Assembly: GCA_036874045.1 (NCBI GenBank) | Contig: CM072339.1 | Location: 11,787,501 to 11,851,500, forward strand | Reading direction: 5' to 3' | Length of the DNA stretch: 64,000 nt | Origin: Cymodocea nodosa | Taxonomy: Eukaryota; Streptophyta; Magnoliopsida; Alismatales; Cymodoceaceae | Part shown: positions 4,356 to 62,502 of the stretch, piece after piece | How the letters are laid out: each line of letters begins with the position of its first letter | How positions within the stretch are numbered: the first letter of the stretch is position 1 | Notes under the pieces: generated by a model | Database searches by the model: none | Seen by the model: the letters and a program-made list of their open reading frames with translations, nothing else | Told to the model about the DNA's origin: nothing | Position numbers and translations under genes: made by a program

Positions 4356-4362
4356 AGTTTTA

Positions 4363-12315: not shown

Positions 12316-12338
12316 AGGTATATTTTTTAAATCAAGAA

Positions 12339-31480: not shown

Positions 31481-32878
31481 TCATGTAGATGGTGAAGGGT
31501 TAGTTCCTGAAGTCTCTCCTTGTGCCAAATGCACACCTGCCAAGCGGGGATTTGGTACAGTGTTACTTGGTAATTCTCTCCGTGCTCTACTTCCAGATGA
31601 AGTAGACAACCTATCAAAATTTGCTTCTAATCCCTTAATGATTTGGTCATGGCTAGCTAAAATGGGATTTACTTGTCTGCTAACTTGAATTAGGGATTGA
31701 ATCGCTTTCTCCATTTCAATAAATCTTTTCTCCAAAGCAGACATTCTATCACTTAAATTTGGCTGAGTGGGTCCATGATGCTCAGTACGGTTTCCAGGTG
31801 CTTCTGGTTGTCACCACAAAAAACTGGGATGGTTTCTCCATCCCGGGGTATAGTGTGATGACGATTGGAATGACCTTTGTCCCATACCAATGGCATTAAC
31901 TTCCTCAAACTGTTGTCCTTACATTGTAGGGCATTCTTCCATGATGTGCCCAGGAATTCCACATGCTATACACTTGACTTCAATCACTTTATCTTTTCCC
32001 TTTTGTTGACTTATAATCAGATCTTCTACTTTTTTAACCATGGACGACATCCTAGCTTCCATGCCTACCATGGGGTCTACTGTGTGCATTCCCCTTGCCA
32101 AAGTTCTATCAAATGTTCTATCTGATGAACTTTCCATTTCCATTATTCTCTCAGCAAGGTCCACAAGTCTATCCCATGCACTGACTTCATCTAATTTCAT
32201 GAATCGTCTAGGACATACAGATTCTAACATCAACTTGGTCTGATAATCCAATCCTTCATAGATTACTTGACACTATCTTGATTTAGGTAAACCATGATTA
32301 GGACATCTTGCCACTAGTCTATTGAAACATTCAAAATATTTTCAAAAAGGTTCATTGGTTTGCTAGCAGATGTTTAGAATAGCATTCTTAGCTTGAATGG
32401 TCTTATGCAAAGGATGAAATTTCTTAACAAAGACAGCACAAAAATCAGTCCAAGTACAAATGGAATTAATAGGAAGGGTGTTCAACCATAGTTTCGCATC
32501 ATCTCAAAGAGCGAAAGGAATAAATCTCAACTTTATTGCATCAACAGGCACTTCAGGTAGATTAATCATGTTGCAAACATCATTAAAGTCATTTAGGAAT
32601 GCATATGCATCTTCCTTATCTAGTCCATGAAATCTAGGCAGCTGATTGACATAATTCATATGCAATTGAAATTTATGTCCATCTACTTGTGGCAATACAA
32701 GACAAGAGGGATGGTCATGCATTTGAGGATAGCAGATGCTCTCAAGAGAAGGTAATTGTTGGTTTCTACCTTAGTCTCCCATCCTTACAGGCTCTTCTAA
32801 CACACTAACTTCTTCTTCGAAAGGGGTTTGTCTAATTAATCTAGATGCGCTATCTCTCACCCACTTAGAAGATTGCAT
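31481..32878 (-). pseudogene. B: Gag ORF, downstream of integrase
   Basis: The minus-strand ATG at 32878 opens a single frame of 466 codons including stop, with no frameshift. The Athila-type N-terminus (SASRLIRQTPF) leads to the capsid core (MNYVNQLPRFHGLDKEDAYAF near 32650) and a YEGLDYQTKLMLES segment near 32235. A CX2CX4HX4C zinc knuckle, CIACGIPGHIMEEC, lies near 31935-31980; the GWRNHPSFLW motif and a C-terminal helix follow. Unlike family A, this Gag keeps its knuckle. In-frame stops occur at about eight places (near 32774, 32503, 32371, 32345, 32273, 31918 and 31810). It starts 203 bp after the integrase stop, on the same strand. Confidence 0.88.
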
Positions 32879-33081: not shown

Positions 33082-36000
33082 CTAATTATCAGATTCAGCA
33101 TAAACAGCATCGATTAAAACAATATTCTCTCCATGGCCAAATAATCTTTGCTGCAAGAAAGATTTTAAACGGTGGTCATTGACCTTAGAAACTTCCCCAC
33201 TCTTAGGGTTTTCAATCTCCATTGCTCCATGAGGAAACGTACTTTTTACCACAAAAGGTCCTATCCACCGTGATCTTAACTTACCAGGAAATAGATGTAG
33301 TCTAGAATTATACAACAATACCTGCTGTCCTACTTCAAAATTCTTACAGAAGAGCTTGCTATCATGAAATACTTTACTCTTTTCTTTAGCTATCCGTGAA
33401 TTCTCATATACCTCTCTTCGTATTTCTTCTAAGTCAGTCAATTGAAAATTTCTTTTCTTACCAGCAACCTTTAAATCTAAGTTGTGTCTTTGAATAGCCC
33501 ATCTTGCCTTATGCTCAAGCTCTACTAGTAAATGACATGCCTTTCCAAACACTACTCTATATGGAGACATATTTAAAACAGACTTAAAAGCAGTCCGATA
33601 AGCCCATAATGCCTCATCTAACTTTTCTGCCCAATCTTTTCTTGTCTTTCCAACTATCTTTTCCAAAATTTGCTTATTGGCATTTTCTACTTGTCCATTG
33701 GTTTGTGGGTGATAGGGGGTTGTCATTTTATGGTTTACTCCAAATTTTTTCATTAATACTTCAAAACTTCTATTATTAAAGTGTGTTCCCTTATCACTAA
33801 TGATTGCTCTAGGAATGCCAAATCTAGCAAAAATGTTGCTCTTAATAAAATTTATTACTACCTTAGAATCCACAAGTTCGTGTGGGAATAGCTTCAACCC
33901 ATTTGGACACATAATCAATAGCTAACAGAATATAAAAATAACCTCCAGAATTAGGGAAGGGTCCCATGAAATCAATACCCCACACGTCAAATACTTCAAC
34001 TTCAATAATTGGTGTAAGCGACATCATATTTCTTCTAGTCAATCTTCCTACTTTTTGACAATCTCTACAATTCTTAACATAGAAGTATGCATCTTTATGC
34101 AATGTGGGCTAGAAAAAACCACATTGAAGAACTTTAGTTGCAGTCTTAATAGGGTTAAGATGACCATCAACAGGTTGGTCATGACAAGAAGATAGCACAC
34201 TATGAATTTCCATATCTGGGATGCATCTCCTCAAAATCAAATCAGGGCCTAACTTATAAAGATAGGGATCATCCCAATAAAATTCTTTGACCCAAGCTAA
34301 AAATCTCTTAATATCTTGCCTTGACTAATTGCTAGGTAGTCATTTTGTCACAAGATAATTCATAATATCTGCAAACCAAGCGATTGGAGTTATAGCCATC
34401 AACTACTCATCAGGAAATGATTCATCAATGGGTAACTCCCCCTGAGGCATGACAATACGAGACAAGTGGTCGACAACTACGTTCTCACATCCTTTCTTAT
34501 CTTTTATCTCAATATCAAATTCTTACAAGAGAAGAATCCATCTAACTAATCTAGCCTTAGCATCTTTTTTAGCTAATAAATATTTAATGGCAGAATGATC
34601 AGTGAAAATGATAACATTAGAGCCTAGCAAATAAGATCTAAACTTCTCAAGAGCAAAAACTATAGCTAAAAATTCTTTCTCTGTAACTGTATAGTTCAAT
34701 TGGGCTACTTTAAGAGTTTTAGTAGCATAATAGATTACCCTAGGTAATTTATCAATTCTTTGCCCCAACACAGCACCAATTGTATAATCTGATGCATCGC
34801 ACATCAACTCGAATGGTTGAGACCAATCGAGTGGATACACAATAGGGGCTAAGGTGAGGACTCCCTTAAGCTTATCAAACTCCAGAGAATTCAAACTTAT
34901 GATCCTTTGATAATAAACTAGTTAAAGGACGGGCAATCTTACTAAAATCCTTAATAAATTGTCTATAAAACCCAGCATGACCCAAAAAAGCTCTTATATC
35001 CTTAATAGATTTAGGGGGTGGTAGGTTGGCTATCAAGTCTACTTTAGCTTTATCTACTTCCAACCCATTCTTAGAAACAACATGGCCTAATACAATTCCA
35101 TGTTGCACCATGAAGTGGCATTTCTCCCAATTTAAAATCAAATTTTTCTCTATACATCTTTTTAAAACCAATTCTAAATTCTTAAGACACACATCAAAGG
35201 AAGAACCTGACATAGAGAAATCATCCATAAAAATCTCTAAGAAGTTATCAATCATGTCTGAAAAGATTTCAGTCATACACCTTTGAAAAGTTGCAGGAGC
35301 ATTACACAAACCAAAGGGCATGCACTAGAATGCAAAAGTACCAAAAGGACATGTGAATGTGGTTTTCTCTTGGTCACAAGGTGCTACAGGAATTTGGTTA
35401 TATCCAAAATAACCATCTAAGAAACAATAATATTCTTGCCCAGCTAACTTCTCTAACATTTGGTCCATAAAAGGCAAGGGAAAATGGTCTTTCCTAGTGG
35501 CGGTATTTAGTTTTCTATAATCAATACATACTCGTCATCCTATTTGCACTCTAGTAGGGACTAGTTCATGATTGCTATTTTCTACAATTGTAATACCAGA
35601 TTTCTTTGGGACAACCTGAACAGGGCAAACCCAAGGACTATCAGAAATAAGATAAATGATGTCATGATCTAGCCACTTAATAATTTCTTTTCTAACCACA
35701 TCTTTTATGTTTGGGTTTAATCTTCTCTATGGGTCCCTAGAAGGTGTAATGTCATTATTCAAATGAATTCTATGTTGACATAAACTAGGGTCAATTCCTT
35801 TGATGTCGGCCATGATCCAACCAATGGCCTTCTTATGTTCTTTTAAAATTATCAACAACTTCTCTTCTTGTTCTCTAGAAATATGGGAAGACAAAATAAC
35901 TGGCAAGGTGTTCTCTTTTCCCAAATAGGCATACTTAAGGTCTTGAGGCAAGGGTTTTAGTTCAAGAGAAGGTGGTTCTACAATAGATGGTTTCTTAATC

Positions 36001-36794
36001 TCTCCTAAATCTCTTTCTAAAGGCTCTATGTAATTTAATTCAAAAATATTATCACTCTCACCAATGTCATCATCTAAGTCATGGATATGTGCTAGATCAA
36101 CCTCATATTCTATAGGTGGATAATCTTCATCTTCAGATAAACTATAATTTTCTACCCCCTCACCTCCATCCATAATGCTTAATAAGCTCACATTAAAATT
36201 TTCATTATCTAAAATTTTAACGTCTGGGTGAGATTTAAAAATATTTAAATCAACCTTAGCATCACCATAAGTTATTTGCATAGACCCATCTCTACATCCT
36301 ATATATGCATCTGCTGTGGCTAGGAAGGGTCTTCCTAAAATAAGGGGCACATTCAGCTTTCTACCAAGTGAAGGTTGATTTTCTAAGACAATAAAGTCTA
36401 TGGGATAGACAAAATATTTAATCTTAATCAATATGTTTTCAATAACTCCTAAGGGAGTTCTAAAAGAATGGTCAACTAGTTGAATGAGAACCTTAGTGGG
36501 TTGAATACCATTAAGTCCTAGGTTCACATAAACACCAGATGACATAACATTTACTCCTGCTCCCAAATCTATCAATGCTCTATCAAAATAGGTATCTCCA
36601 ATTGTACAAGAGATGGTTGGAGTACCTGGAACACTAAACTTCTTAGGCAAGTCTTGACAGAAATAGGCACTAACGGATTTAGCTAAGCACACTTTCATAG
36701 GTGTCTTCCTAGCTCGTTTCTTTGTACATAATTCCTTTAAAAACTTGGCATAGGCAGGTATTTGCTCTATTGCATCTAGTAATGGAATGTTAAT
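33082..36794 (-). pseudogene. B: PR-RT-RNase H-INT
   Basis: Reading leftward from the A3 insertion: the pre-protease motif PAYAKFLKELCTKKR, then aspartic protease with LIDLGAGVNVM active site (about 36555-36590) and LILGRPFLAT (about 36320). An acidic linker follows. RT has FMDDFSMSG (about 35220), RNase H has DASDYTIG and TDHSAIKYL (about 34600-34810), integrase has its zinc region (34040-34200), and the core has ISDKGTHF and GQVENANKQ (33690-33800). A GPF tail ends at 33082. The protease frame (35727-36794) is open over 356 codons. Lesions include TAG near 35725, TAG near 35325, a frameshift near 34890, stops near 34525 and 34405, and a frameshift near 33890. Family B differs from A at many residues throughout. 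Confidence 0.9.
36790..36794. repeat. target site duplication of A3, left copy
   Basis: TTAAT immediately left of the A3 LTR; the matching copy is at 51578-51582. It proves insertion of A3 into B. Confidence 0.92.
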
Positions 36795-38600
36795 TGTTTG
36801 GGTTTTCCCAACACTATACTAGAAAAACTTGGATTTGTTACTTCTGTTTTTACTTAGTTAATTTATCTTTATGCCTATTCTTTCTTTTAGAAGTAAACAA
36901 ACAACCTTTAATACAATTTAGATATTAATTCCAATTTGTACTTTAACTGCAAGTGCACAGTGTCTATTATATCAGTGTGCAAGTACAAGTCGATCCCACA
37001 GGGAATTACTGACGAATTTAAGAACCGTTCGATTGTTAACAATTCAAATTTATATTCAATAAGCACTCCATTGAATTATAATTAACTCAACAGACAAAGT
37101 TCGTTGAGTTATAGCTAACTCAACAGACTATCCTCATGGACTTAAGTTAACTCCATGAGCCTGTCTCTTCTTTATAATATTGCTATTTACAAAGGAATTT
37201 GGCCAACCATTAGGCGATTCCATAGATTGTAAATAACATCAATTAAGCTTTTTAATGCTAGTTAACAATGGATTTATCATTAAGCAATACCAACATTCAG
37301 ATGATTCAAATAGTAACCATTAAAATCATTAAGTCTTTTGTACGAACCAATTTTAGTAAATTGTAAAATTAAAACTAACTTAAAACAATCACAAAATTGA
37401 TACAGATAACATTAATCACGATACAACACAAACAATACAACACTCAAATACAACATACAAACAAAGATAAATTATTTTTGATATTTTTGTTTTGATGTGA
37501 ACATGGAAATGGGTGAAAGGTGAAATGTAAAGTAATCTCACTTGACAGTAAATACTTCCGACACTACTTGCAACGCGATTACACCACTGAAAATTAAATC
37601 ACTTACAATCCTGTCTCCTCTCCCTATAGAATCACGAGTTCAAAATTGCAAGATGATCTCCTCTTCAGCATATAGGCATCAACCCAAAGCCAAGGCTAAA
37701 AGCTTTACGATCTCCTGAAATATGAGTCAACGCTTGGTGAAAATGGCTTCCCTTCCTGCGACACGATCACTCATCACAATGGTTGTCAGGCACTGTGTTT
37801 GGCTCGGAATCGACCCGACATCAGGCAAGTATCCTCACAAACCTTCGATGGTTGGTGATTATGATGGTGATAGCAATGGTTGGTGTGATACTTCGAAGAA
37901 TCGCCGGTACTGTCTGTAGAAAGCTCGGTGCTCCTCCTCTGTATACATTGGCCGTCCATCGATCGCACCTTTTTTTCTTCTTTTCTTTTATATTTCTTCA
38001 GTAGTAACTACTTCTGCTTAAATGATCGGTTGGATTTCCTTCCTTCAAATCAATGACGATGCTTCCTTCTCCTACGCGATACGTGCAAACGTGGTTTTTC
38101 CTTCCAACTGTCTGTTCCTGCAACCGCTACAATGGCATATTAAAAAATATAAAGAAATAAGCTGCTAACATAATGCGTTACCTTAGTGTAATATTCATAT
38201 AACTCAACGCGTACAATTATGCTAACTTAACGAGTTAAACATGTGCATCTCACGTGATATTCTAAAGCATTTAAATTCAACACGTGCATAAATCTAACTA
38301 TCCGATGCTCAGGTGCATTTCGAATACTTATAAACTTAACTCACCGATATATAACTTAAGTAAATCTACCAGATCTCAACATGTGTCAGCAGCAATTTAG
38401 TCATAAAATAACATTTCGGAGAGTTACAGGTCTAACTATCTGATGCTTAGATGCATTTTGGATAGTTACAGCTAACTCACTGAAAATCCACTTAAGTCAA
38501 TTTCCTAGAACATGACACGTGTCCTCAGCTATTTATAAATAAAAAGAGATTTCGGAGAGTTACAAGGATAACTCTCCAATACAACATGACACGTGTCCTC
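36795..38600 (-). repeat. A3 3' LTR, truncated
   Basis: The element-strand end (CCCAAACA) is at 36795. The TATA box (37985-37992) and GC-richer block are present. The first several hundred bases of the LTR, including TGTTTAGAATG, and the polypurine tract are deleted; at 38601 the sequence passes into a 31-bp filler. Confidence 0.88.
37985..37992 (-). promoter_or_regulatory. LTR TATA box (A3, 3' LTR)
   Basis: TATAAAAG on the minus strand, same context as in the other A LTRs. Confidence 0.55.
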
Positions 38601-38631
38601 ATAATAGATTACCCTAGGTAATTTATCAATT
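38601..38631. other. 31-bp templated filler copied from element B RNase H
   Basis: These 31 bases are identical, in the same orientation, to 34727-34757 inside the B RNase H coding region. They sit at the junction between the broken A3 3' LTR and a T-run in the A3 3' region. They look like filler DNA left by repair of a double-strand break that deleted the polypurine tract and LTR start. Confidence 0.8.
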
Positions 38632-39909
38632 TTTTTTTTTTCATACTTTAAAAGTTAATTTGACAAGCTTGAATCATACAAGAGTTTTCTAATGTACCCA
38701 TGTAACGAGCTTTCAGTCAACAATCCCAGATCTGATCAAGATCTTAGGTTGTCAGATTTTAAGAGTCATTTTTCAGGTCAACAATCTTTACATACCTATC
38801 TGCTCAAGTACAAAAGGCTCGTGATCAAACAAGTCAATAAACTCTCAAAATTTATTTATTTTTCTTATTTTTTTCAATCAAAACTACAAACACAAAACAA
38901 AACATTAATCACATACTATATATGTATGTATTTCATTAATACAGATGTAGTAAAATGCCAATCTCATATAGTCCTGCTTCTATCAGTTACTGAAAATATG
39001 AATCCATAACAATAAGCTCATACTTTTTCTGTAGTTTAATAAGATCTACACATAAATCATTCTACAAGTTCAATCAGTCAAATTAAATATATCTCTAATC
39101 ATATGTGTTTCATTTAATCTAGAATTCACATCTCAGCTCTTTCAAGACTTTAGATAATTTTCTAATTAAGCATTAAATATTCTGATTTCATTTTAAAATC
39201 GTAAAACTGTTAAACTCATGAAATTCAGAAAAAAACATAAGATACTATATCTAGATTTGCATAACTAGTAAATTCAATAACATCTTATATAGCCTTCTAA
39301 ATATAACATTCAAGCAGTTTATAAAAAATTTTACAATCTCAATTATCGGATAGTTACAGCAAGTTCATAAAATTTTCAATTTCCTCAAAACTTTGCAGTA
39401 CTATTTTAATTTCTTTAATTAACAAACTTACATGGCTGTTACTTTAATTACCTCCCCCCCATACCTACATTTTGCATTGTCCTCAATGTAAAGAGTTTGA
39501 CAATAAGTAAAGTAATTGTAGCAGGCATGAATACAGTTTTGCTTGATTTAAAATTCAGGATAAGTAATTGGTTACATACCTTGTTCCATTTGTATCTCCT
39601 TCTGCATATTCTGATTTTTGATTCTGAAAAAACTTTTCATTCCCAGATAAACACAGAATATAAAACAAAATAACATTTAACAGATATTAATAAATTAGTG
39701 TCTTGTGTGGAACCCAGGCTCCTATGCCTTTGGTGGCTCACAAGCAAGCCAGTTGGTTTCCCAAAACAGATATCAACAAACTAGATTGATATTTTGTTTT
39801 GTTTGTTTTTTTTTTTATAAAATGAACATGAAAACTTCAAAATTCCTTTTTTTTTTCTTTCTAAAAAATAAATGCAGAATACACAACGTTAAACACACAA
39901 AATCACAGC
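38632..39909 (-). other. A3 3' untranslated region
   Basis: Non-coding and homologous to 26088-27340 of A2. It contains the GGACAATGC...GTAGGTATGGGGGGGAGG tract (39451-39488, minus strand) and the conserved GC-richer patch (39700-39790). About 500 bp next to the LTR, including the true polypurine tract, are missing. Confidence 0.75.
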
Positions 39910-41049
39910 TTAAGAACATGATTGAAAAGTAGAAACAAATGGAATAAATGTATCAGTCCAAGCAAACTTTTTAGGCATAGTTCTTCTTGCTATTAATTCT
40001 ATTTTAATGCAGTTCTTGTTCCTTCTTAATTTGTAAACATGTAATATATTATAAATTCCAAATATGAGTGTATTACCATTAATGATATGTAATGCAGAAA
40101 GGGATCCTTTTTGGTTCCAAGGTAATGTAGCAGTTTCTATTTCTACATCTATTTCAATATACTCCTCTTCCCACTTCCATTCATTCATGTCTTCCATAAT
40201 CCATATTTGAAATTTCATCAATTCATCCCACCATCTTATCAGACATAAAGTAGGATCATCTTTTTCATTATACCACATTCCTATTTGAATTTCATTAAAT
40301 TCTGCAGATAGTGGTTTAGCTATTTCACTCGGTACAGGTAAAATTTCTATATAATCATCATAACTGTCTATGCTCACTATGTATAAATCAGATCCATATG
40401 CTAATGATATCTCTGTGACTAAATAGATATATCCATCAAGTATGACATGTGTTTGGTTAATTAATGATTTCTGTCCTAGATGTATTATAACGTTTTCATT
40501 CCAAGATCTGTTCAGAAAATTATATACACTTAAGCGTAAATCTTCACCCCAATTTCCTATAGGTCTCCAATAATATAATTTTTCAGGAATTGCAGAATTT
40601 TTATCAGAAAATATTAAAGTTGACCCACAATTTTCAGTTGGTGCTTCAAATATATTAGGTCTTCCTATATTCCATTCTTCCCCTATTATAGGATTTCGTA
40701 TCAAAATATCAGGTAATATTAAACTTGCATACCTTGGTCTCGTCTTGTATATGATTAATCATTCATCTATCCCCATAATATGATTTATTCCTTCTAATGC
40801 ATTGGGTGGAATTCTAGTAGTTTCTTCCATAGCCAGATATTCATGGGTATTTGAACTACGATTAAATGACCTCCATATGAATCCATCTTTAATCTTAGTC
40901 ATTTTTGCAGCTTGTAGTCCTTGAAAATATTTTTCTTCAATACAGTCTTTAATTTCCTTTGATACACAACACAGCCTGCACAGATCTTTAGCTGACAAGT
41001 TACTTAATACTTCTCTTAATGCATCCAACGGTAATTGCATCAATTCCAT
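39910..41049 (-). pseudogene. A3: F-box protein ORF
   Basis: This has the same 379-codon layout as the A2 copy. It opens with MELMQLPLDALREVLSNLS and contains the KDLCRLCCVSKEIK F-box continuation, LIRNPIIGEEWNI and GNTLIFGIYNILHVYKL. The only break is a TGA at about residue 97 (40756-40758), where A2 has GGA. Since the A2 lesion is a different codon (TAG for Trp), the shared parent had an open F-box frame. It lies 189 bp downstream of gag and 1.3 kb before the remaining 3' region. It could equally be called a captured host gene; its presence in both copies shows it travels with the element. Confidence 0.88.
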
Positions 41050-41237
41050 TTGTCGATTCTGTATAACACAAACAAAAATTTAGTAGAGACAAAAATTAAC
41101 ATAACTACTGCACACCCTCGTGGAGTTAAGGCATAACTCAATGGACTAAGTTCGTTGAGTTAAAAATTAACTCTATGATACTATTAACTAAAAATAAAAC
41201 ATATATACATATAGATAGTTGCTTCAAATATGCTGCT
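41050..41237 (-). promoter_or_regulatory. A3 gag-F-box spacer, candidate 3' splice site
   Basis: The minus strand reads CTACTAAATTTTTGTTTGTG then TTATACAG, with AG at 41059-41060, ten bases upstream of the F-box ATG. Branch-like CTACTAAAT, T-rich tract and ATACAG are near-identical to A2. Confidence 0.4.
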
Positions 41238-42582
41238 TCATTCAGCTACCCTCCTAGAAGAGGTATCAATTTCATTAACCGTTCTATTGACAAGATTAGG
41301 TATAGCTTGTATTGGCAATCCTCCAGTAGGTCTAACTTTCATTGGTTCCTTCTGTCTAAGTGATATATTTCTATTTTGATTTTGAATTGCAGCATTTCCA
41401 AATATAAATTCTAGACGATTGTTTACTTGTTGGATTATCTTTTCTAATTTCTCTATTTTAGCTCCTTGTTCAATTAATACTTCATAACTTATGTTCTTCT
41501 CATTTATATTTTCTCCTCCCTAGAAATTGTTGTTTCTCCAAGATAAATTCGGGTGATTTCTCCAATTAGGATTATAAGAATTTCCCAAGTTATCTCTCTA
41601 GTTACTAGCATAAATAATATCTAAGTCATTTATGTTTGTATTCTTTTCTGCTAGCTTTTGATTTAATGATAACTCTTCTATTTTCTTTGTTAATTCATTT
41701 AATTTCACCTCTAACATAGTATTGGAATCTATTTCATGCATTCCTCTTGGCAATATTCTTTTATCTACAATAGCTTCAACCGAATTTTCCCACTGTGTAG
41801 TTCTTTTTGCAAAGTTTTCTAAATATGCCCATGTTTCTTCACTACATAATTTTAATAATCCATTTCGACAAGTAGATTCTAATAAAGATTTCGTTGAAAT
41901 ATGTATGCCTTCATAAATTATACCTATTAATTGTGCTTTACTCATTGCATGATGTGGACATTGAGTCAGTAAATCTTTAAATCTTTCAAAATATTTCCAG
42001 AATGATTCACCCTATTTTTGGCTACACATTAATATTTCTTTCTTCTTTTTAATCGTTTGATGTGTCGAATAATATTTTTCCAGAGAAACAGAGCAAAATT
42101 CAGTCCATGTAGAAATTGAATCAGGCGACAGAGTATATAACCATCTTTTAGCTGTCTTTTAAAGAAAAAGGGATATATCTAAGTTTAATAGCATCTATAC
42201 TCATGTTTGGCATTTTCATCATTTGACAAACTTCGTTAAATTCTCTAAGGAAATAATAGGCATCCTCTCTTTCTAATCCATGAAAATGTGGCAATTGACT
42301 AATGTAATTAGATTTCAGTTCAAACCTATCTCCCTCTAAGTTTGGTAGCAATCGAATACATGAAGGTTCATCAATTAATTCAAGATACAGAATTTCTCCT
42401 AATGGTTTTTGTACTGGAGCAGCCATCTCTACGTTCTCTTTTAAAGAAAGGTTAACTACACCCCAAAGAATTTCATTAAAGTTCAGTTCAGAAAATTTTT
42501 CAGTACTCCTCTGCAATGAAAATTCCTAGGTAGGTGTTCTTACTAATCGTTTAGTGCTAGGAGAACGAGTCCATGTGCTCAT
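41238..42582 (-). pseudogene. A3: Gag (capsid) ORF
   Basis: ATG 42582 (minus) opens MSTWTRSPSTKRLVRTP. Capsid core LPHFHGLEREDAYYFLREFN lies near 42270-42310, GESFWKYFERFKDLL near 41980, and the WRNHPNLSWRNNNF motif near 41550. No zinc knuckle is present. It ends GTAGCTGAATGA at 41238. Lesions: a 2-base deletion near 42155 (frameshift), TAG codons shared with A2 (after RTPT, before GESFW, before RDNLGN), and a private TAG near 41521. A TATA box lies 162 bases before the ATG. Confidence 0.88.
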
Positions 42583-43518
42583 AAATAAATAGCAGAAGAT
42601 TGATTACATACCAGTCTGAAGCTTTCCATTCTATAAATATTTGTTGTCGGATGAAGTTGAATCAGCTGCTTCTCCTTCCAGTTCCTCCAACGCTTTCTCC
42701 TTTCTTTTAAAAGTGCTGGTAACTCGTAAATAACATTCTGTTTCTTATATATACTGTGCATCCATAAAGTGAATAAATCTCATTGCAAGAACGTGTCTTG
42801 CAACGTGCATCGTGGTTCCTATTTTTATGGGTATGTATACCACTACTAATTTCAAATTTTGGTAACCGCTAAACCGACGAAGTTTCGTTCATGGTTAAAA
42901 GAATAACTGTTCTGCTTAATCCACGAACTAACCTCGTTGAGTTACAAAAAACTCAACAGAACATAGTTGATTACTGTTGCTAACTCCACGGACTAACTTC
43001 GTTGAGTTATAGATAACTCAACGGAGTGACTTATATTATATTACTGACCTCGTGGAGTTACGGTTAACTCAACGGACTTACTTTGTTGAGTTAACACTAG
43101 GCAACAACTAAGTTTTACTCTCGTAAGTTCCTATCTTTTTTTTCTTTTTTTTTTTGTTCTGCTAACTGAAATAAAGTTAAATCTATGTCATTAATGCATC
43201 ATTTTGATTAAAATTCATTTAAATCTAAATCTTATATAAAGATTTAACTTGCAGGTCATTTTATGTTATGCAGAATTTACATTTTACCTTATAATATGTA
43301 GAAATTTTTAAGTAGTTTTCCTGTCATTCAGCAAATTGTAAATCTGTTACATATTCATTCATAAAACTTCACAATAACATAATATTCAATAATTTCCATT
43401 CATTTCTCATCCAAAACACGTATGAAAATTGCATCTGAAAAATTTACATTCATTAATATGAATCAATTACAATACAAGTACACCATACAATTTTACACAA
43501 GTAGACGAACAATACAAT
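42583..43518 (-). promoter_or_regulatory. A3 ORF2-gag spacer with candidate internal promoter
   Basis: On the minus strand: AT-rich part, perfect palindrome CGTTGAGTTA-TAGA-TAACTCAACG at 43000-43023, a TTGCAAGA...TCTTGCAA palindrome near 42785-42810, TATA box TATATATAAG at 42744-42753, then a GTATGT donor-like site at about 42606-42611 before the gag ATG. The order and spacing equal those of A2. No ORF here is supported. Confidence 0.5.
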
Positions 43519-44508
43519 TTAATCTTTATGCCTAAGTTCATCTACTTCCTTCTGGAGTTTTTCTAATTGCTGCTCTAATTGATTTATCCTCTCTTCTGCT
43601 CCTACAATTTCTCCAAAAGGTACAACTAATTCCGCAGCTACAAAATTTCTGTATTCTTTCACTGAAATGGTTCGGGATCTGATACTTTTTGATGTCCATT
43701 TAGTGAAATCAATACAATCCACCATTAGTAGTGGAATCAAATCTCCATAAAATAATTTCTTCTTCACTATTTTCAGCTTGGAGATAAAAACTGCAGACCA
43801 ATTTATTTGGATCTTATTTACAACTATATACGTGGCCCATTTGACAAATTGACTTAATTCTATGTCATGGCCCTGTCGTTGATAGACATTCTTAATCAGA
43901 ATGTTAGCTACCATGTGTGCTTTACCATTTAAATGCTTCAATCTGTTTAATAATAGCACACTAGGATTGATAGCTAAACAATCCTTAATTTGCTGCTCAG
44001 TCCATTCAATTGCAGTTGTATCTTCCAAAATTTTTGTTCCTTCATTCTTTAAACCAAATATGTTGTGGAGAAGCTCTGGTGTTATATATACATCAGCTTC
44101 CTCCACGTTTGAAATTAATCCTCCTCTTTCTCTCAAATTTGAATAGAAACAGGGCACTAAATTTTCATATACTACATGCCCTCTTTCTTGAGATATAAAT
44201 TGCAGTAGACCTTGGAATTCAAATAGATCTTTGATTTCTTGCATTCCATCCCAATTTACTAGTCTACTGTAAATAATATCATAACCCCTTATTTCTTAGT
44301 ATTTGGTATAAGCTTCCTGACTACAAAAATGTACTTCATTCAAAATTGTTGTTTCAGTCGAGTTAGGAAGGTGACTTTGTTGCTCTAGAGGTGTTTGTAC
44401 TTGTTCTTCCTCTAGCATAGGCTGTATTTGGACATTCTCTTCAGATTCCCTCAGAAATTCTAATGTATCAACAGCATCTTCCCAGAATTCAGGCGTCATC
44501 TTCCTCAT
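43519..44508 (-). pseudogene. A3: ORF2 with internal deletion
   Basis: The start MRKMTPEFWEDAV aligns with A2 ORF2, but the acidic middle of roughly 400 residues is missing; ESEEN joins directly to the segment before NEVHFCSQEAY. The C-terminal domain (43519-44244) is open: LFEFQGLL, ENLVPCFYSNL, YITPELLHNIFGLKNEG, then QFVKWATYIVVNKIQINWS and a coiled-coil tail ending RHKD. One TAG near 44295 (KY*EIRGY) is the only stop, so the deletion kept frame. Its better preservation suggests that the C-terminal domain is the essential part, or just chance. Confidence 0.82.
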
Positions 44509-45087
44509 CGTGGAGTTACACAACAGCACGGAATCGCTCTGATTTCTACTATTCTAGATTCTAAATGATTTACCGGATAATACCCCCAAAACCCTAGGTT
44601 TTAGTTTAAATAAGCCCTAAGTTTAGGTGGGTAATCGGGTCATTTCCCGAACCAACTATTACTATTTTATCTACGGTCTTAGCTACAGTACTCCATTGAG
44701 TTACAGTTAACTCAATGAAATAAGCTCATTGACTAACTCAAGACTCAACGAAGTAAGCTCGTTGAGTTAAGTGTAACTCAACGGACTTCCCGTACAAGCA
44801 AATATAATAATAAAAATATTACAGGGAATAGTTTTTCTGTTTTTTTACCGGTTTAATTGATACTATGTTTCGGTCAGACCTAAATATTTTTTATTTTTCT
44901 TTTGGTTGAACCGATACTATGTTTCGATAAAACCATTATTTTTTTTGAAAATTAATATTCATATTTTTTTATGTTCCGGTCATACCGATGGATCCAATCG
45001 GTTGAACCACAACTATTTTTATGTTTTATATATATTTTTAATATTATTTTTATATATATATATATAAACATAAAAACTGATTTCTTA
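44509..45087 (-). promoter_or_regulatory. A3 pol-ORF2 spacer with leader
   Basis: The minus strand holds CGGT...ACCG palindromes (44850-45010), GTTGAGTTA...TAACTCAAC stem-loops (44690-44785), then a leader with AGGGCTTATTTAAAC and CTAGGGTTTTGGGGG (44585-44625) about 80-120 bases ahead of the ORF2 ATG. TATTTAAA could serve as a TATA-like element. Confidence 0.45.
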
Positions 45088-48000
45088 CTAAGTAAAGCTC
45101 GAGTAGTCCTCTACTCTGACTTCTTCTATAATTCCAAAGGAGCTTTTTGGTGTTTTCAGAATAGGTTTAAGTCTTTGTCCATTTACCTAAAATATATTCT
45201 GATTTTTAGGATTTTCAATTTCAATAGCTCTATAAGGATAAACATTTCGAACTATGTAAGGTCCTGCCCATCTAGATCTTAATTTTCCTAGATGGTTATG
45301 GAGTTTAACCATATAAAGATATACTTCTTGTCCTATTTCAAAGCTTTTAAAAATAATTTTTCTATCATGCCAAAATTTAATTTTCTCTTTTTCTCTTACA
45401 GTCTTTGAATAAGCTTCATTTCTAAATTTTTCTAATTCAATTAGTTGCATTTTCCTATTTTCAGCAGCTTGATTTAAATTAGTGTTCAGAGTTTTTAATG
45501 CCCAATAAGCTTTATGTTCTATTTCAGCAGGTAAATGACAACTTTTTCCATATACTAGCCGAAAAGGTGACAAACCTGAGCTTGTTTTATAAGCAGTTCT
45601 ATAAGCCCAAAGTGCATCTATCAATCTATTAGCCCAATCTATTCTAGTAGGATTTACTACTTTTTCCAAGATTAATTTAATTTGTTTGTTTGCACTTTCT
45701 ACTTGTCCACTTGTTTGCGGATGATATGATGTTGCAATTTTGTGGTTTACTCCATACTTCTTCATTAAGGCTTCAAAACTTCTATTACAGAAATGAGTTC
45801 CTCTATCACTGATAATAGCTTTAGGTATTCCAAATCTAGCAAATATATTTGTTCTTATAAATTGTATTACCACTTTGTTGTCATTAGTTTTTGTAGGAAT
45901 AGCTTCTATCTATTTTGATACATAATCCACCCCCAACAATATGTAATTAAATTGATTAGACATAGGAAATGGACCCATAAAATCTATTCCCCACACATCA
46001 AAGATTTCAACCTCAACAATAGGATTAAGAGGCATCATATTCATCTTTGATATTCTTCCTATTTGTTGACATCTTAAACAACTTAAGCAATATTTATGAG
46101 CATCTTTGAATAGTGTTGGCCAATAAAACCCACATTGTAGAATTTTTGTAGCAGTTTTCCCTGAACCAAAATATCCTCCACAAGCTTGGTCATGACAGAA
46201 AGACAATATGCTCGAATATTCAGTTTTTGGAACACACCTCCTTAAAACCAGATCAGGACATTTCTTAAATAAGTAAGGGTCTTCCCAATAATAATATTTT
46301 ACTCTTGAGAAAAACAATTTCTTATCCTGTCTATTCCAATCCTTAGGTGTTAAACCAGTAACTAAGTAATTAACTATGTCTGCATACCAAGGCATTGTGT
46401 TGATGGTCATTAATTGTTCATTAGGAAAATTATCCTTAATTTCAATATTTAATTTTTCTATTTGTAATCTTGATAAATGATCTGCTACTACATTCTCACA
46501 ACCTTTTTATTTTTAATTTCTAGATCAAGTTCTTGTAATAATAATATCCATCAGATCAATCTAGGTTTAGTTTCTTTTTTTTTTATTAGATGTTTTAGAG
46601 CTGAATGATCCATGTATACTATTACTTTAGCTCCAATCAGATATGATCTAAACTTTTCTAAAGCAAACAAACAGCTAATAATTCTTTTTTAGTAGTTGTG
46701 TAATTAACTTGAGCATCATTTAAGATTTTGCTTGCATAATGAATCACTCTAGGAGATTTTTCTATCTTTTGTCCTAACACTACACCTACAGCAAAATCAG
46801 AAGCGTTGCACATTAATTCAAATGGATGGTTCCAATTAGGTGCTTGAATTATAGGAGTTGAAATTAAGCTAGTCTTAAGTCTGAAAAATGCTTCCTTGCA
46901 TTTTTTATCAAAGTTAAATGGAACATCTTTTAATATATTAGTTAAAGGTCTAGCTATCTTGCTAAAGTCTTTAATAAATCTTCTATAAAAACCAACATGA
47001 TCTAATATCTTTTACTGATTTAGGTACTAGTAGATTAGAAATTACTTCTATTTTAGTTTTATCTACTTCCAACCCTTTTTTAGAAACAACATGCCCTAAG
47101 ACTATTCCTTGTTTAACCATGAAGTGACATTTTTCCCAATTTAAAACCAGATTTTTTTCCACACAGCGTTTTAATATTTGGTCTAAATTGCTTAAACACA
47201 CTTTATATGAGTTGCCATATACAGTAAAATCATCCATAAATATTTCTAAAAAATCTTCAATCATTCCAGTAAATATCTGCACATACCTTTGAAAGGTAGC
47301 TGGCACATTGCATAATCCGAATGGCATTCTTTTAAAAGCATAAGTTCCATTAGGATAGGTGAAACTTGTTTTCTCTTGATCCTCTAATACTATTGGAATT
47401 TGATTATACCCTGAATACCTATCTAGGAAACAAAAATATTATTGCCTTGCTAATCTTTCCAACATTTGATCTATAAAAGGTAAAGGAAAATGATCTTTCC
47501 TAGTCATAGCATTCAGCTTTCTATAGTCTATACATGCTCTCTAGTATGATTGAATTCTAGTAGGTATCAAGTCTTGACTTTCATTCCTAATAATTGTTAA
47601 TCCTGATTTCTTGGGAACTACATGGATTGGACTAACCCACGAGCTATCAGAAATCAGATAAATTATATCATTATCTAACCATTTAACTATTTCCTTCCTG
47701 ACTACTTCTTTAAGGTTTGAATTTAATCTCCTCTTAGAAATTCTAACAGGTTTAGCATTCTCTTCTAAATATATATGGTGACAGCATAAAGTTGAACTTA
47801 ACCCTTTTATATCAGTCATAGTCCATCTTATTGCTTCTTTATAACTTTTTACTACATCTTTTAATTTAGCTATTTGATACTCTTTTAAATCTGAAGCAAT
47901 AATGATTGGACAGGTCTGTTTATCTTCCAAAAATATATAGGTTAATTCAGGAGGTAAATGTTTTAATTCTATATGCTGCCCATCAGAAGCTAGAGCCCTT

Positions 48001-49719
48001 AATTGAACATCATCATTTTTTAAATTAATTTCTTTTTGATCTCCTTCTATATTTATGCTTTCACTTTCTTCTAAAGTTTCAGAATTGATTTGCCTATTTA
48101 ATTCTTCTTGAATCACATCATCTAACATATCTCCTTCATCCTCTAAAAAGTCTATGGTATGTAAGGACATTTCTAACTCCTCAAACCTTTCTGGTTTGAA
48201 AATATTTAATTGAATATCCTCATTACCATATGCTAACTTCATTACTCCAGTTTTATAATTGATAACAGCCCCTGATGTTGCTAAAAATGGCCTTCTCAAA
48301 ATTAAAGATGTATCACTATTTTTATGCTTAATTTGTTGGGAATCCAAAATTACAATATCAATAGGATATATAAAATTCTTGATTTAATTTAAGACATCCT
48401 CTATTTTTCCTCTAGGGTATCTTATACTTCTATCAACTAATTGAATAACCGTACTAGTAGGAGTCAAGCCTTCTAATCCTAAGGATGAAAATATATCACT
48501 TGGCATAACATTTATACCTACACCTAAGTCTATTAATGTTCTTTCTAAAATGGTATTTCCTATGGTGCATGATATAACAGGGATTCCAGGATCAGATAAC
48601 TTTTTAGGAATTTGTGGTAGAAATAGGGAACTACTTTTGCTCAGCTAAAAAGACCTTTTTAAGAACTTTTCGCTCTCTTTTCTTAGTACACAAATCCTTC
48701 AGAAATTTAGCACAAGGTGGCATATTCTACAATAGATCTAACAAAGGAATGTTAACTTGTACTTTTTCAAAAATTTCTCTGATTTTCTCTTGTCTTTCAG
48801 GAATTGTTTGTTGTAATCTTTCAGGATAGGGTGCTAAAGATTTCGATTTCAAAGACTCTTTTTCTTTCAGTTGATTTGTTTGATCATTTTTAGCTTCAAT
48901 CATAGATTCAAATTGTTCTTCAATGATTTCTAGATTTTCAGCTAATACATTTTCATTATCATTTTGATTTTTACTCTTGTCCACCTTCATATCATTTTCA
49001 TTGTGAGTTCTTGGTGGTATATCAGTTCTAGATCTTAATGTTACACATACATCTTCCAAATTTTCATTATTTTCATGATGTTTTTGCATATCATTTTCGT
49101 GATTATGATCTTCAATTGTTTTTAGTTTTAAAGTACATTCTTTAAATTCTCTTACATTAGTGTTTTCTGTTTGTTGTATATTTTGCAAATTATGCAGATT
49201 TATAACATTATAATTCTCATTGTCCTGTTGCATAACTTGTATTTTCATTGCATTTTCGTCTAATGCTTTTAATTTTGTTTCCAGATCATCTAATTTCATT
49301 GCATTCAATTTTTGATCAACTTTCTTTATGGCTTTTTCAGTTTCGTAAATTATATCCTGTTTAGGTTCTGAATATGATTCCTTATAGTTTAACTGGTTGA
49401 CTTCTTGTTGTTGACACACAAAGTATTCTAGTTTGTCCAGATTTTGCTCTATACTATACTCCAGTCTGTCATAGCTATCCCAAACTTCAGTGTCTCTCAT
49501 CATGTTACACATTCTATACTGACCATCAATTGGGTAAACTATAGGATTCTCATACTCGGCTCTATTATATTAAGGATAATTCATTTGTTGTTCATGGGAT
49601 CTAACCATTTGTAAACGTCTCAATTTCAAACAATCAAAAATGTCATGTCCTTCAGAATTGCAGAATTCACATATGCTAATTACAGGTTTCAGAAATCTTT
49701 GAGCATAAGCATATGCCAT
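45088..49719 (-). pseudogene. A3: zinc knuckle-PR-RT-RNase H-INT polyprotein
   Basis: ATG 49719 (minus) opens MAYAYAQRF; knuckle CEFCNSEGHDIFDC follows, then a charged linker (48727-49512). Protease carries DLGVGINVM (about 48510-48540) and RRPFLAT (about 48285), RT has FMDDFTVYG (about 47225), and RNase H lies at 46560-46830. Integrase HHCC is at 46060-46200; the core has ISDRGTHF and GQVESANKQ (45680-45815). A GPY tail ends at 45088. Unlike A1 it keeps the protease active site. Lesions: TAA near 49570, TAG near 48729, an extra A near 48650, TAA near 48383, a stop near 47541, a deletion at about 46998 and a frameshift near 46507, plus a stop near 45186. The ATG lies 90 bases after the primer site and no capsid region precedes it. 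Confidence 0.9.
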
Positions 49720-49808
49720 ATTCTCAATTACAGAAGAAAGCACACAACTCTGGCTATTAAAATGAAACAGTTCTAACAGTTGCTTATATCTATTCAATTC
49801 AATTTAAT

Positions 49809-49826
49809 TCCCCGACAGCGGCGCCA
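49809..49826 (-). promoter_or_regulatory. primer binding site of A3
   Basis: The minus strand reads TGGCGCCGCTGTCGGGGA, two changes from the tRNA-Asp-type site. It is separated from the LTR by seven bases, as in A1. Confidence 0.9.
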
Positions 49827-49833
49827 TAAAACT

Positions 49834-51577
49834 TGTTTGGGTTTTCCCAACACTACACTAGAAAAACTTGGATTTGTTACTTCTGTTTTTACTTAGTTAA
49901 TTTATCTTTATGCCTATTCTTTCTTTTAGAAGTAAACAAACAACCTTCAATACAATTTAGATATTAATTCCAATTTGTACTTTAACTGCAAGTGCACAAT
50001 GTCTATTGTATCAGTGTGCAAGTACAGGTTGATCCCACAGGGAATTGTTGACGAATTTAAGAACTATTTGATTGTTAACAATTCAAATTTATATTCAATA
50101 AACACTCCGTTGAATTACAGTTAACTCAATGGACAAAGTTTGTTGAGTTATGGCTAACTCAATGGACTATCCTCGTGGACTTAAGTTAACTCCATGAGCC
50201 TGTCTCTTCTTTATAATATTGCTATTTACAGAGGAATTCGGCCAACCATTGGGCAATTCCACAGATTGTAAATAACATCAATTAAGTTTTTTAATGCTAG
50301 TTAACAATAGATTTATCATTAAGCAATACCAACATTCAGATGATTCAAATAGTAACCATTAAAATCTTTAAGTCTTTTGTACGAACCAATTTCAGTAAAC
50401 TGTAAAATTAAAACTAACTTAAAACAATCACAAAACTGATACAGATAACATTAATCACGATACAACACAAACAATACAACACTCAAATACAACATACAAA
50501 CAAAGATAAATTGCTTTTGGTATTTTTGTTTTGATGTGAACATGGAAATGGGTGAAAGGTGAAATGTAAAGTAATCTCACTTGACAGTAAATACTTCCGA
50601 CACTACTTACAACGCGATTACACCACTGAAAATTAAATCACTTACAATCCTATCTCATCTCCCTATGGAATTGCGAGTCCAGAATTGCAAGATGATCTCC
50701 TCTTCAGCATACAGGCATCAACCTGAAGCCAAGGCTAAAAGCTTTACGATCTCCTGAAATATGAGTCAGCACTTGGTGAAAATGGCTTCCCTTCCCACGA
50801 TGCGATCACTCCTCACAGTGGTTGTCAAGCACTGTGTTTGGCTCGAAATCAATCCGACATCAAGCAAGTATCCTCACAGACCTCCGATGGTTAGTGATTA
50901 TGGTGGTGATAATGATGGTTGGTGTGATACTTCAAAGAATCGCCAGTACTGTCTGTAGAAAGCTCGGTGCTCCTCCTCTGTATACATTGGTCATCCATCG
51001 ATCACACCTTCTTCTTTTTTTCTTCTTTTCTTTTATATTTCTTCAGTAGTAACTACTTCTGCTTGAATGATCGGTTGGATTTCCTTCCTTCACTTAACCA
51101 TTAAGTCATTAAACATAACTGTCCTCTGTATCTATAACTACCTCAGCTGCAATTTCGGATAGTTATAGATAACTCACCGAAAGTTCACTTAAGTCATTCA
51201 TTCTGGTTTCGACATGTGTACTTCAGGAAATAATAAAATATTCTCTCAAAACATAACTATTCGGTAATTTAAACATAACTATCTGATACATATTCGGTCT
51301 GTTAAACATAACTGTCCGAATTTGTTCGGTATGTTAAACATAACTGTCCGAAATATCAGAATATTCGGATGCTTAAGAATTTCACAGCCTGCATCTTACC
51401 GACAGTTCATAAATGTACTAAATTAACATTAATTCCCCAAAATTAAGTAGATTCTTCAATTAAAACATATAACAGTGTAATTATAACATAATGGCTTAAT
51501 TCTTATATGATAAGCTAAATATTATGCAATTAACCATCATTTAACCATTAATAATATGCACTTTTTCATTCTAAACA
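49834..51577 (-). repeat. A3 5' LTR
   Basis: 1744 bp, with ends TGTTTAGAATG (51577) and CCCAAACA (49834) on the minus strand. The TATA box is at 51030-51037 and the GC-richer block at 50640-50990. A deletion just upstream of the TATA region removes U3 sequence present in the 3' LTR. Right flank TTAAT matches the left side of the element. Confidence 0.92.
51030..51037 (-). promoter_or_regulatory. LTR TATA box (A3, 5' LTR)
   Basis: TATAAAAG on the minus strand, same context as in the other A LTRs. Confidence 0.55.
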
Positions 51578-51582
51578 TTAAT
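51578..51582. repeat. target site duplication of A3, right copy
   Basis: TTAAT directly after the LTR terminus, matching 36790-36794. Confidence 0.92.
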
Positions 51583-52335
51583 ACTAACATGTTCAAAGAT
51601 TTCTCTCATCTTAATATTCTGATCAATATCCTTATGTGGAGTTCTTAATCTATGGGGAAAAGGGGTAGGTTGACTTTCTAAAGGGATACTTACCTTGGAT
51701 AACTTACCTTTACCCTTTTTATCACCCAATAAAATTTCATTTTCAGATTCTTTATTTAGTTTATTGGATGAACCTAAATCATCTGTAGGAACACTCATCG
51801 GTACAAGAGAAGGAGTTTCCTTTTCAGGAATGCTCACCTCTCTCCCGGACCTTAAAGCAACATAAGTTTCAACTGATTCATCCTCAACCAAGGATGTTGA
51901 TCTTAAATCTATGTTTTCATAACCATCTATGTCAATGGGGGCACTAGAGGCTTTTGCTAAGTTTAATAAATCCATAGAGGTGTTAAGTTCAGCAATTGCC
52001 TTAGCTAAGTTTACTGAAGATTCAGCATAGGAAATATTTCCTATAGGCTTTTCCATTTTAATTTCACAACTATAGCTACTAGTGTCATAAGCATCAGCAT
52101 TATAATTTAAATTTGGCATAGATAGGCTAACATTAGAACTAAAACATGCACCTACATTGCTATTTAGCATATAAAATGGGCAATCAGCATCAACGTGATT
52201 ATTCAATTTGCATTTAGAACATGTAGGTGTCAAATCAAAACTAAATTCATCCATATTATAATTTAAATATTTATCCAGAATGGCATGCAAATTTTCAACT
52301 AAATGAACAAACTTAATGTATTCAATCAAGCACAA
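51583..52335 (-). pseudogene. B: zinc knuckle and linker ORF upstream of protease
   Basis: This is the front part of the B pol ORF, cut by A3. It contains a second CX2CX4HX4C knuckle, CSKCKLNNHVDADC (about 52180-52225). A Ser/Asn-rich linker follows, then VALRSGREVSIP (typical of the Athila Gag-PR linker) and PFPHRLRTP and REIFEHVSIN just before the insertion. The coding sense continues at 36794 (PAYAKFLKELCTKKR). No convincing ATG opens the frame; an in-frame TGA lies just upstream of 52335. No capsid domain lies between the primer site and this ORF. Confidence 0.8.
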
Positions 52336-60413: not shown

Positions 60414-60722
60414 CTAGCACATATATTGTTCCGGTTTGTCCATGTTTTACTCTAAGCTATGCTCTAGTCTATCATACCTATCCCAAACTTCCTTGTCTCT
60501 CAACATATTATACATTCTAAACTGACCATCAGTTGGGTAAACTATAGGATTCTCATACTCAGCTCTATTATATTGAATATAATTCATTTGTTGTTCATGT
60601 GATCTAACCATCTGCAATCGTCTCAGTTTCAAACAATCAAAGATGTCGTGACCTTCCAAATTACAGAATTCACATATGCTAACTACAGGTTTCAAAAATC
60701 TTGAAGCATAAGCATATACCAT
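60414..60722 (-). pseudogene. A4: start of zinc knuckle-pol ORF
   Basis: ATG 60722 (minus) opens MVYAYASRFLKPVVSICEFC with knuckle CEFCNLEGHDIFDC and the same following residues as A1 and A3 (RLQMVRSHEQQMNY). About 100 codons remain, with a TAG near 60443, before the inserted LTR at 60413. It shows a fourth case in which the knuckle, not capsid, is the first coding feature after the primer site. Confidence 0.85.
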
Positions 60723-60803
60723 ATTCTCAATTATAGAATAAAACACACAACACTCCTCCTGCTATTAAAACAAAACAGCACTCATAGTTGCTTAGCTTCT
60801 CAA

Positions 60804-60821
60804 TCCCTAGCAACGGCGCTA
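60804..60821 (-). promoter_or_regulatory. primer binding site of A4
   Basis: The minus strand reads TAGCGCCGTTGCTAGGGA, three changes from the tRNA-Asp complement, 82 bases before the pol ATG. Confidence 0.78.
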
Positions 60822-61904: not shown

Positions 61905-62440
61905 CTATTGAGGAACTTGCTAAAGGACTCGACAGGTGATAGGCTAAGGGACCTGAAGGACCTGGAGGGTGAAGGGAGAAGGCCTTAGGGACCTATGGGA
62001 GAAGGGGGTTAATCCTAATGGTTCCTCCCACGAACTTGGATTTGTGAGGGATTCTAGGCTTACTTAAAAGGATTGGTAACGTCGTTGCTATCAGCTCGAG
62101 CTTTTGGCATAATGGTAGCCCAATCCTAACAAGTGGTATCAAAGCCTACTCATAGACGCAGGTTCGAATCCTCGAGAATGCATTATGGGATGCATTTTTT
62201 TTGGGGGGGGGGGATTATTAATGAACCTGTTGAGGGACTCAACGAGTGATGGGCTAAGGGACCTGAAGGACTTGGAGGGTGTAGGGAGAAGGCCTTAGGG
62301 ACCTATAGGAGAAGGGGGTTAATCCTAATGGTTCCTCCCACGAACTCAAACTTGTGAGGGATTCTGGGCTTACTTAAAAGGATTGGTAACATCGTTGCTA
62401 TCAACTCGAGCTTTTAGCATAATGGTAGCCCAATCCTAAC
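61905..62440 (+). mobile_element. TRIM-like miniature LTR retrotransposon
   Basis: Two direct repeats of about 227 bp (61905-62131 and 62214-62440) flank an 80-bp centre. The centre begins TGGTATCAAAGCC (62134-62146), a primer site complementary to initiator tRNA-Met with one change, and ends in an 11-G run (62203-62213) serving as polypurine tract. ACTTC flanks both sides (61900-61904 and 62441-62445) as target duplication. There is no coding capacity, as usual for TRIMs, so it would move only with enzymes from other elements. The repeats differ at around 20 sites by eye. Confidence 0.85.
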
Positions 62441-62502
62441 ACTTCTGACGCTACCTGCAATTAGCGCGGTTCTCCACTACTGCTCACACAATTTTTCTTC
62501 GT

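What the first reader, a model, noticed from the sequence alone, without database searches (positions are those of the whole stretch)
36795..51577. Pol-first, gag-last gene order in a complete gypsy element (A3)
Seen: one element bounded by TTAAT duplications has, on its own strand, primer site, zinc knuckle-PR-RT-RNase H-INT, ORF2, then capsid Gag, then an F-box ORF, then the 3' region. Known: gypsy elements and retroviruses place gag ahead of pol, which keeps Gag in excess. Inference: here pol is the first ORF on genomic RNA and Gag must be made from another transcript, so dosage control would work differently. I know of no described plant gypsy lineage with this order.
Basis: partly seen in the sequence, partly recalled or inferred. 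Interest (0 to 1): 0.88.

Follow-up and report, generated by a model that had tools for sequence, protein, structure and literature searches.

The report
Plant retroelements carrying gag after pol
Two many-copy families of plant mobile elements carry their shell-protein gene (gag) at the back end instead of the front, in one family inside a removable intron, which breaks the expected gene order for this kind of element.

Summary
A3 (36795-51577, minus strand, 5-bp duplication) reads LTR, primer site, zinc knuckle-PR-RT-INT, ORF2, gag, F-box, LTR; its flanks rejoin into an open frame of its host element A4. A3 is not intact: pol, ORF2, gag and the 3' LTR/PPT are damaged. A4, a second family, also has gag directly after INT. 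In the 374.6-Mb genome a capsid-free PBS-to-PR block matches at 40 of 40 scored loci, gag running into F-box at 40 of 40 (36 starting inside ORF2), and A4's INT-gag junction at 40 of 40; each list includes the query's own locus and ranks by likeness. Of 10 fetched copies, four (three insertions) are complete with gag last. New: four of 10 lack gag by one identical GT-AG deletion, so gag lies inside a ~1.55-kb intron ending at the F-box exon, and spliced RNA was reverse transcribed, probably at least twice. Gag dN/dS resembles INT and F-box. How Gag is translated, and its dosage, are inference. All eight gag copies examined carry stops.

The parts
36795..51577 (-). A3 element
   Evidence: LTR pair plus 5-bp duplication ATTAA (element strand); empty site gives the open A4 frame
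49834..51577 (-). A3 5' LTR, 1,744 nt
   Evidence: 93.7% identical to the 3' LTR over the 1,260-nt BLAST piece, 91.7% over 1,328 aligned columns
36795..38576 (-). A3 3' LTR, lacking about its first 440 nt; the PPT is also lost
   Evidence: alignment with copy C and its 3' LTR
49809..49826 (-). primer binding site, 7 nt after the LTR end
   Evidence: sequence; tRNA-Asp type by resemblance to relatives described in PMC1142308 (passages), complementarity not computed
45151..49719 (-). first coding block: zinc knuckle (49630-49671), PR, RT, INT; broken frame
43519..44553 (-). ORF2 (env position); lacks 1,215 nt present in copy C
   Evidence: PF20167 below cut-off in copy C
42612..42629 (-). exon end upstream of the intron (MESFRL), in frame with the F-box after splicing
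   Evidence: junction text in copies d, g, h, i
41059..42611 (-). GT-AG intron (1,553 nt) holding the whole gag ORF; missing exactly in copies d, g, h, i
41238..42582 (-). gag ORF (capsid and C-terminal coil, no zinc knuckle), with stops and one frame break
39910..41058 (-). F-box exon, one internal stop
42916..43109 (-). hairpin array at the ORF2/gag border
   Evidence: fold z -5.44 for 42960-43100
44690..44785 (-). hairpin array at the INT/ORF2 border
   Evidence: fold z -6.67 for 44690-44800
41134..41162 (-). hairpin between gag and the F-box, inside the intron
   Evidence: surrounding fold not significant in A3 (z -0.18)
18910..30003 (+). copy C of the same family: INT, ORF2, gag 23414-24757, F-box 24918-26087, PPT, 3' LTR from 27823
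23385..24938 (+). the same gag-bearing intron in copy C (1,554 nt)
2720..10288 (+). copy B of the same family, 5' half: LTR, PBS, zinc knuckle ORF, PR, RT, INT; no capsid; lacks about 200 nt in PR
60418..63323 (-). copy F, diverged and interrupted: LTR, PBS, zinc knuckle; no capsid in the part present
33082..33921 (-). A4 integrase (second family)
31481..32878 (-). A4 gag ORF, starting 203 nt after the INT stop, own zinc knuckle, one frame with stops
   Evidence: junction at 40 of 40 scored loci
51571..52254 (-). A4 pol ORF start: zinc knuckle and linker, no capsid found in front
35727..36818 (-). A4 protease and RT start, continuing from 51571 across the A3 insertion

Best explanation
A3 belongs to a large Athila-related Ty3/gypsy family whose gag was moved, before the family spread, from the front of the polyprotein to the region between ORF2 and the 3' LTR. 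Pol, headed by a zinc knuckle, is the first ORF on genomic RNA. Gag lies inside a ~1.55-kb GT-AG intron in front of an F-box exon. Shown from DNA: the order, its copying at many loci, gag after INT in a second family, the exact intron, and gag-less copies cut at its borders. Inferred: transcripts that keep the intron give Gag, spliced ones give the F-box protein, and genomic RNA gives Pol, so the Gag:Pol ratio is set by RNA processing rather than by frameshift or readthrough. Copies that lost gag by splicing would need Gag in trans.
For: Order in A3 and in copies a, b, e, j; INT-ORF2-gag-F-box-LTR in copy C. TSD and PPT in copies a, e, i, j. Genome blocks at 40 of 40 scored loci each. Identical GT-AG loss of gag in 4 of 10 copies, while the other large gaps found are not GT-AG. 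Gag-less copy i pairs with gag-bearing j, apart from g and h (0.993 in the F-box tree, 0.833 in the exon tree), suggesting at least two losses. Spliced exon in frame with the F-box. Pooled dN/dS: gag 0.60, F-box 0.56, INT 0.55. Fused relative P0001 is divided near residues 432-449. A4 and A3/C gag group together (SH 0.970, UFBoot 92; 0.972-0.976 and 93-94).
Against: No RNA or protein data. All eight gag copies checked (A3, C, a, b, c, e, f, j) have in-frame stops, 2 to 6 each; c has no start codon at the usual place and j lacks about 60 nt there. One stop near the ORF start is present in five of the eight (A3, C, e, f, j), so the start codon I name may not be the one used. Copy f has lost the donor GT and copy e the acceptor AG. 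Gag is the third ORF on unspliced RNA; nothing that brings ribosomes to it was demonstrated. Support for the gag-less groupings is uneven: the INT tree, weakly supported, does not put g with h. Genome lists score only the 40 candidates most like the query. The search for gag-first elements in this genome did not complete.
Confidence: 0.7

Rival explanations
1. The downstream gag is a passenger: an ancestor lost its front gag, picked up a gag piece, and has since been packaged by Gag from ordinary gag-first elements.
For: A3 and C share three in-frame gag stops, with none shared in pol (A3/B), ORF2 or F-box (A3/C); the first of the three is also in e, f and j. Gag-less copies exist and one is complete with its own TSD. 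Gag-less parasites are known (BARE2; PMC3735527 passages).
Against: At the other two positions all six further copies have sense codons; over the three positions 15 of 18 readings are sense (12 of 15 if duplicate b is dropped). P0011, an 82%-identical 91-aa fragment, is open at the third. Gag dN/dS is close to INT and F-box. A4, a distinct family, has gag after INT too.
Confidence: 0.22
2. Local rearrangement or nested fragments that only look like one element.
For: The window is a dense nest of insertions.
Against: A3's interior is matched in order by copies B and C, apart from about 200 nt that B lacks; TSDs on A3 and on genome copies; the same blocks at many places in the genome.
Confidence: 0.02
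3. The gag-less copies are the older form and gag entered later as an intron-like insertion at that exact site.
For: The 10 copies alone do not set the direction of change.
Against: Gag-less copies are scattered among gag-bearing ones; A4 also has gag after INT; an insertion that supplies GT and AG exactly is less likely than splicing.
Confidence: 0.06

Closest known systems
Athila / Calypso / Diaspora lineage (Ty3/gypsy, OTA)
   Same: Athila-type Gag (lineage name from the papers, not from a tree here), PR-RT-INT order, primer site close to the LTR, extra ORF after INT (PMC1142308 passages)
   Different: In Diaspora gag leads one gag-pol ORF; here gag is downstream of INT as its own ORF and pol begins with a zinc knuckle
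Ogre (Tat lineage)
   Same: Two ORFs set apart, and splicing between ORFs (PMC6317226 and PMC3735527 passages)
   Different: That survey classed its Ty3/gypsy elements by the order GAG-PROT-RT-RH-INT; here the intron holds gag itself
BARE1/BARE2 (Ty1/copia, barley)
   Same: Splicing used to set Gag output; gag-defective partner carried in trans (PMC3735527 passages)
   Different: BARE1 splicing makes a Gag-only RNA; here splicing would remove gag
Retand elements with long pol-3'LTR regions
   Same: Long 3' region with extra ORFs; some clusters without GAG (PMC11963269 passages)
   Different: The 3' ORFs described there are antisense to gag and pol

Membership tests
Ty3/gypsy, canonical | Domain order GAG-PROT-RT-RH-INT (PMC6317226 passages) | tested here: not met
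   PR-RT-INT order kept, GAG after INT; RH not separately scored
Athila lineage | Athila-type Gag | tested here: inconclusive
   The gag profile finds 14 proteins, of which P0001, P0002 and P0006 carry protease too, but none is labelled Athila; the lineage name rests on recall and papers
Athila lineage | Gag fused ahead of PR in one ORF | tested here: not met
   P0001 is divided near residues 432-449 and the halves lie in reverse order
Athila lineage | RT/INT phylogeny | not tested
   No named reference RT or INT sequences were fetched
Athila lineage | tRNA-Asp primer site just after the LTR | tested here: inconclusive
   Site present 7 nt after the LTR; complementarity not computed
Athila lineage | env-like ORF after INT | tested here: inconclusive
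   ORF2 present; PF20167 at 7.1e-5, below cut-off; no env test
LTR retrotransposon | LTR pair, PBS, PPT, 5-bp TSD | tested here: met
   Copies a, e, i, j; A3 lacks its PPT

The most novel reading that the evidence does not exclude
A founding lineage of Ty3/gypsy elements, now at least two families, runs on reversed logic: pol is read from genomic RNA, gag sits in an intron at the 3' end, and choice of splicing decides between Gag and an F-box protein. Splicing also repeatedly produces gag-less copies that live off the others.
Probability: 0.5. Interest if true: 0.93.

Novelty: new variant of a known kind. Interest (0 to 1): 0.86.

Why it matters
Gag ahead of Pol is used to define these elements, and a main plant survey removed elements with unexpected domain order as likely mispredictions (PMC6317226 passage), so such lineages could have been missed. 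If Gag excess can be kept with pol first, the rule that gene order sets the Gag:Pol ratio is one solution among others. The intron around gag makes this directly testable with long-read RNA.

Tried and rejected
LTR remnants between the ORFs, as traces of a tandem-element origin: similarity to the LTR stops at the hairpin array (the masked scores of that call are an artefact of N matching N and were ignored). TAG readthrough in gag: not favoured, since at two of the three shared stops all six other copies have sense codons, though at the first three of six have a stop. Parallel decay of the shared stops in A3 and C remains possible (context rates). Copies a and b share flanks and were taken as one insertion. 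Consensus scans for splice sites found the F-box acceptor in A3 and C; the donor near gag was one of many weak donor matches and was recognised only through the gag-less copies. Bacterial promoter and terminator scan and Rfam (0 matches) not informative. Protein search with ORF2: no hit; with the pol 5' ORF: one fragment, P0015. Viral and prokaryote contig scans: no relative. A bootstrap tree timed out and was replaced. A splice check was off by one base and is not used; the junction rests.

Literature: the listings of ten searches showed no report of gag after pol in a plant element; two of them returned no paper. Passages only were read of PMC7264820, PMC1142308, PMC11963269, PMC6317226 and PMC3735527. 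Most subscription papers are not held.

Mended on checking against the calls: the first shared gag stop is in five of eight copies; the P0001 division is less clean (two weaker matches reach back); two gag-bearing copies have lost a splice signal; Athila-type Gag set to inconclusive. For the first of these, confidence in the best explanation went from 0.72 to 0.70 and the passenger rival from 0.20 to 0.22.
Full report
The element. A3 spans 36795-51577 on the minus strand. The 5' LTR begins at 51577, the 3' LTR ends at 36795, and a 5-bp ATTAA lies on both sides. Joining the flanks gives one open frame of the host element A4, from its zinc-knuckle linker into its protease. A3's interior is matched in order by copy B (5' half) and copy C (3' half) at 90-91% identity over the long pieces, apart from about 200 nt that B lacks. 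A3 is damaged: frame breaks and stops in pol, a 1,215-nt loss in ORF2 against copy C, loss of the PPT and about 440 nt of the 3' LTR, stops and a frame break in gag.

The order. From the primer site the first ORF starts with a CX2CX4HX4C zinc knuckle, then a linker, PR, RT and INT. ORF2, gag and F-box follow. At E<0.001 three HMMs, one built only from outside relatives, find three Ty3-type capsid loci in the window: A3, C and A4. All follow an INT on the same strand. None lies ahead of the four visible pol 5' ends (A3, B, F, A4).

The relatives. A profile search with gag found 14 proteins; P0001, P0002 and P0006 have capsid and protease in one protein. P0001 is matched by the downstream gag up to residue 432 (A4) or 380 (C), and by the A3 pol 5' ORF from residue 449. 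Two weaker matches of pol 5' ORFs reach further back (B to P0001 from 368, A4 to P0006 from 395), so the cut is placed only roughly. The usual ORF seems to have been divided there and the halves exchanged. A4 gag and A3/C gag, with P0009, stand on one side of a split from all other sampled Gags (SH 0.970, UFBoot 92; 0.972-0.976 and 93-94 in two reduced sets). This fits one move before the two families parted, but the tree has 15 sequences and is unrooted.

The genome. The window is part of a 374.6-Mb assembly of 28 contigs. A 1,701-nt block from LTR end to protease, without capsid, matches contiguously at 40 of 40 scored loci out of 6,978 candidates, over 1,689-1,715 nt. A 2,901-nt ORF2-gag-F-box block gives 40 main loci scored out of 6,363 candidates; all 40 contain gag running into F-box and 36 begin inside ORF2 (seven further short rows were left out). 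A 1,498-nt A4 block across INT and gag matches at 40 of 40 scored loci out of 642 candidates, all spanning the junction. Each list includes the query's own locus, include both a and b, and all rank by likeness to the query, so they cannot count other arrangements.

Single copies. Ten ORF2 loci were fetched as two pieces each. Four (a, b, e, j) show the whole order from 5' LTR to 3' LTR; c and f show gag after ORF2 in partial copies; d, g, h and i lack gag there. a and b share flanks and are taken as one insertion duplicated. LTR identities are 97.05 and 96.62 (a, b), 95.11 (e), 95.47 (j) and 95.73 percent (i), with LTR ends set by eye. TSDs are seen for a, b, e, j and i; a PPT precedes the 3' LTR in a, e, i and j. 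Of 10 gag loci in these pieces, 9 have ORF2 or INT upstream on the same strand within 3.5 kb, 1 has nothing recognised upstream, and none has a protease downstream within 3.5 kb, though one (in i_dn) lies near the end of its piece.

The intron. In d, g, h and i the missing piece has the same borders: it starts with GTATGT 29 nt before the gag start and ends with ACAG at the F-box exon. Other large gaps in the compared copies (c, d, i, j, the A3 ORF2, B) do not have GT-AG ends. The joined exon reads MESFRL followed by the F-box frame. In unspliced RNA the same short frame ends in a stop overlapping the gag start codon. Among gag-bearing copies f has lost the donor GT and e the acceptor AG; the acceptors of b and c were not printed. 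Copy i falls with gag-bearing j (0.993 in the F-box tree, 0.833 in the exon tree), g with h (0.850 and 0.853), d with c only at 0.559; the INT tree is weakly supported and separates g from h. I read this as reverse transcription of spliced RNA, probably at least twice. A4 has a possible acceptor, a 26-nt mini-exon and a GTAAGT donor just upstream of its gag (by eye; the scan lists that donor but another acceptor).

Constraint. Pooled over pairs of copies, dN/dS is 0.60 for gag (21 pairs, range 0.46-1.12), 0.56 for F-box (36, 0.39-1.12) and 0.55 for INT (21, 0.33-0.84). A4 against C gag gives 0.23, with near-saturated synonymous sites. Between A3 and C gag differs at 6.3%, F-box 5.9%, spacers 8.8-10.2%, ORF2 15.8%. 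Gag thus seems to have been selected at its present place. Against this, A3 and C share three gag stops. At two of them all six other copies have sense codons; at the first, near the ORF start, e, f and j also have the stop and only a, b and c do not. A start further downstream is therefore possible. All eight gag copies examined have stops (2 to 6 each), so no intact gag was seen.

Mechanism. Shown: order, copying, intron borders, gag-less copies. Inferred: Pol from genomic RNA, Gag from intron-keeping transcripts, F-box protein from spliced ones. How ribosomes reach gag, the third ORF, is unknown; an upstream splice, an internal start, or reinitiation are open. Hairpin units of about 33 nt stand in the LTR and at the ORF borders: 15 strict hits against 0-2 in 20 shuffles, 9 in LTRs and 6 between ORFs. 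They fold strongly at INT/ORF2 and ORF2/gag (z -4.1 to -6.7), less at gag/F-box (-0.18 and -2.82). Their role is unknown.

Novelty. The listings of ten searches of an open-access library showed no plant element with gag after pol. The large survey PMC6317226 states that elements with unexpected domain order were removed (passage). I rate this a new variant of a known kind.

Noticed in passing
window 37083-37111, 41134-41162, 42981-43093, 44708-44769, 50122-50150 and copies: Hairpin units (~33 nt) shared between the LTR and each ORF border, strongly folding at two of three borders.
   Followed up: partly
window 10255-13127 (+): ORFs that look, by eye, like a Ty1/copia-type element (gag zinc knuckle, RT/RH end), just beyond the end of copy B's match.
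   Followed up: no
window 15492-17095 (-): ORF2 of a third, distant family (48% and 35% identical pieces to A3 ORF2); no gag found beside it.
   Followed up: partly
window 44438-44448 against 20320/21536: A3 ORF2 lacks 1,215 nt, a multiple of three, with an 11-nt overlap at the joint.
   Followed up: partly
L017-L018, L023-L028: Gag-less copies d, g, h, i; copy i has both LTRs (95.73% identical) and its own GGTAC duplication, though its RT region is also deleted.
   Followed up: yes
window 54754-56767: A full-length LTR (L5) without matching 5-bp flanks, so perhaps not a simple solo LTR.
   Followed up: no
window 52585-53455: Imperfect direct repeats in the long stretch between A4's apparent primer site and its pol ORF.
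   Followed up: no
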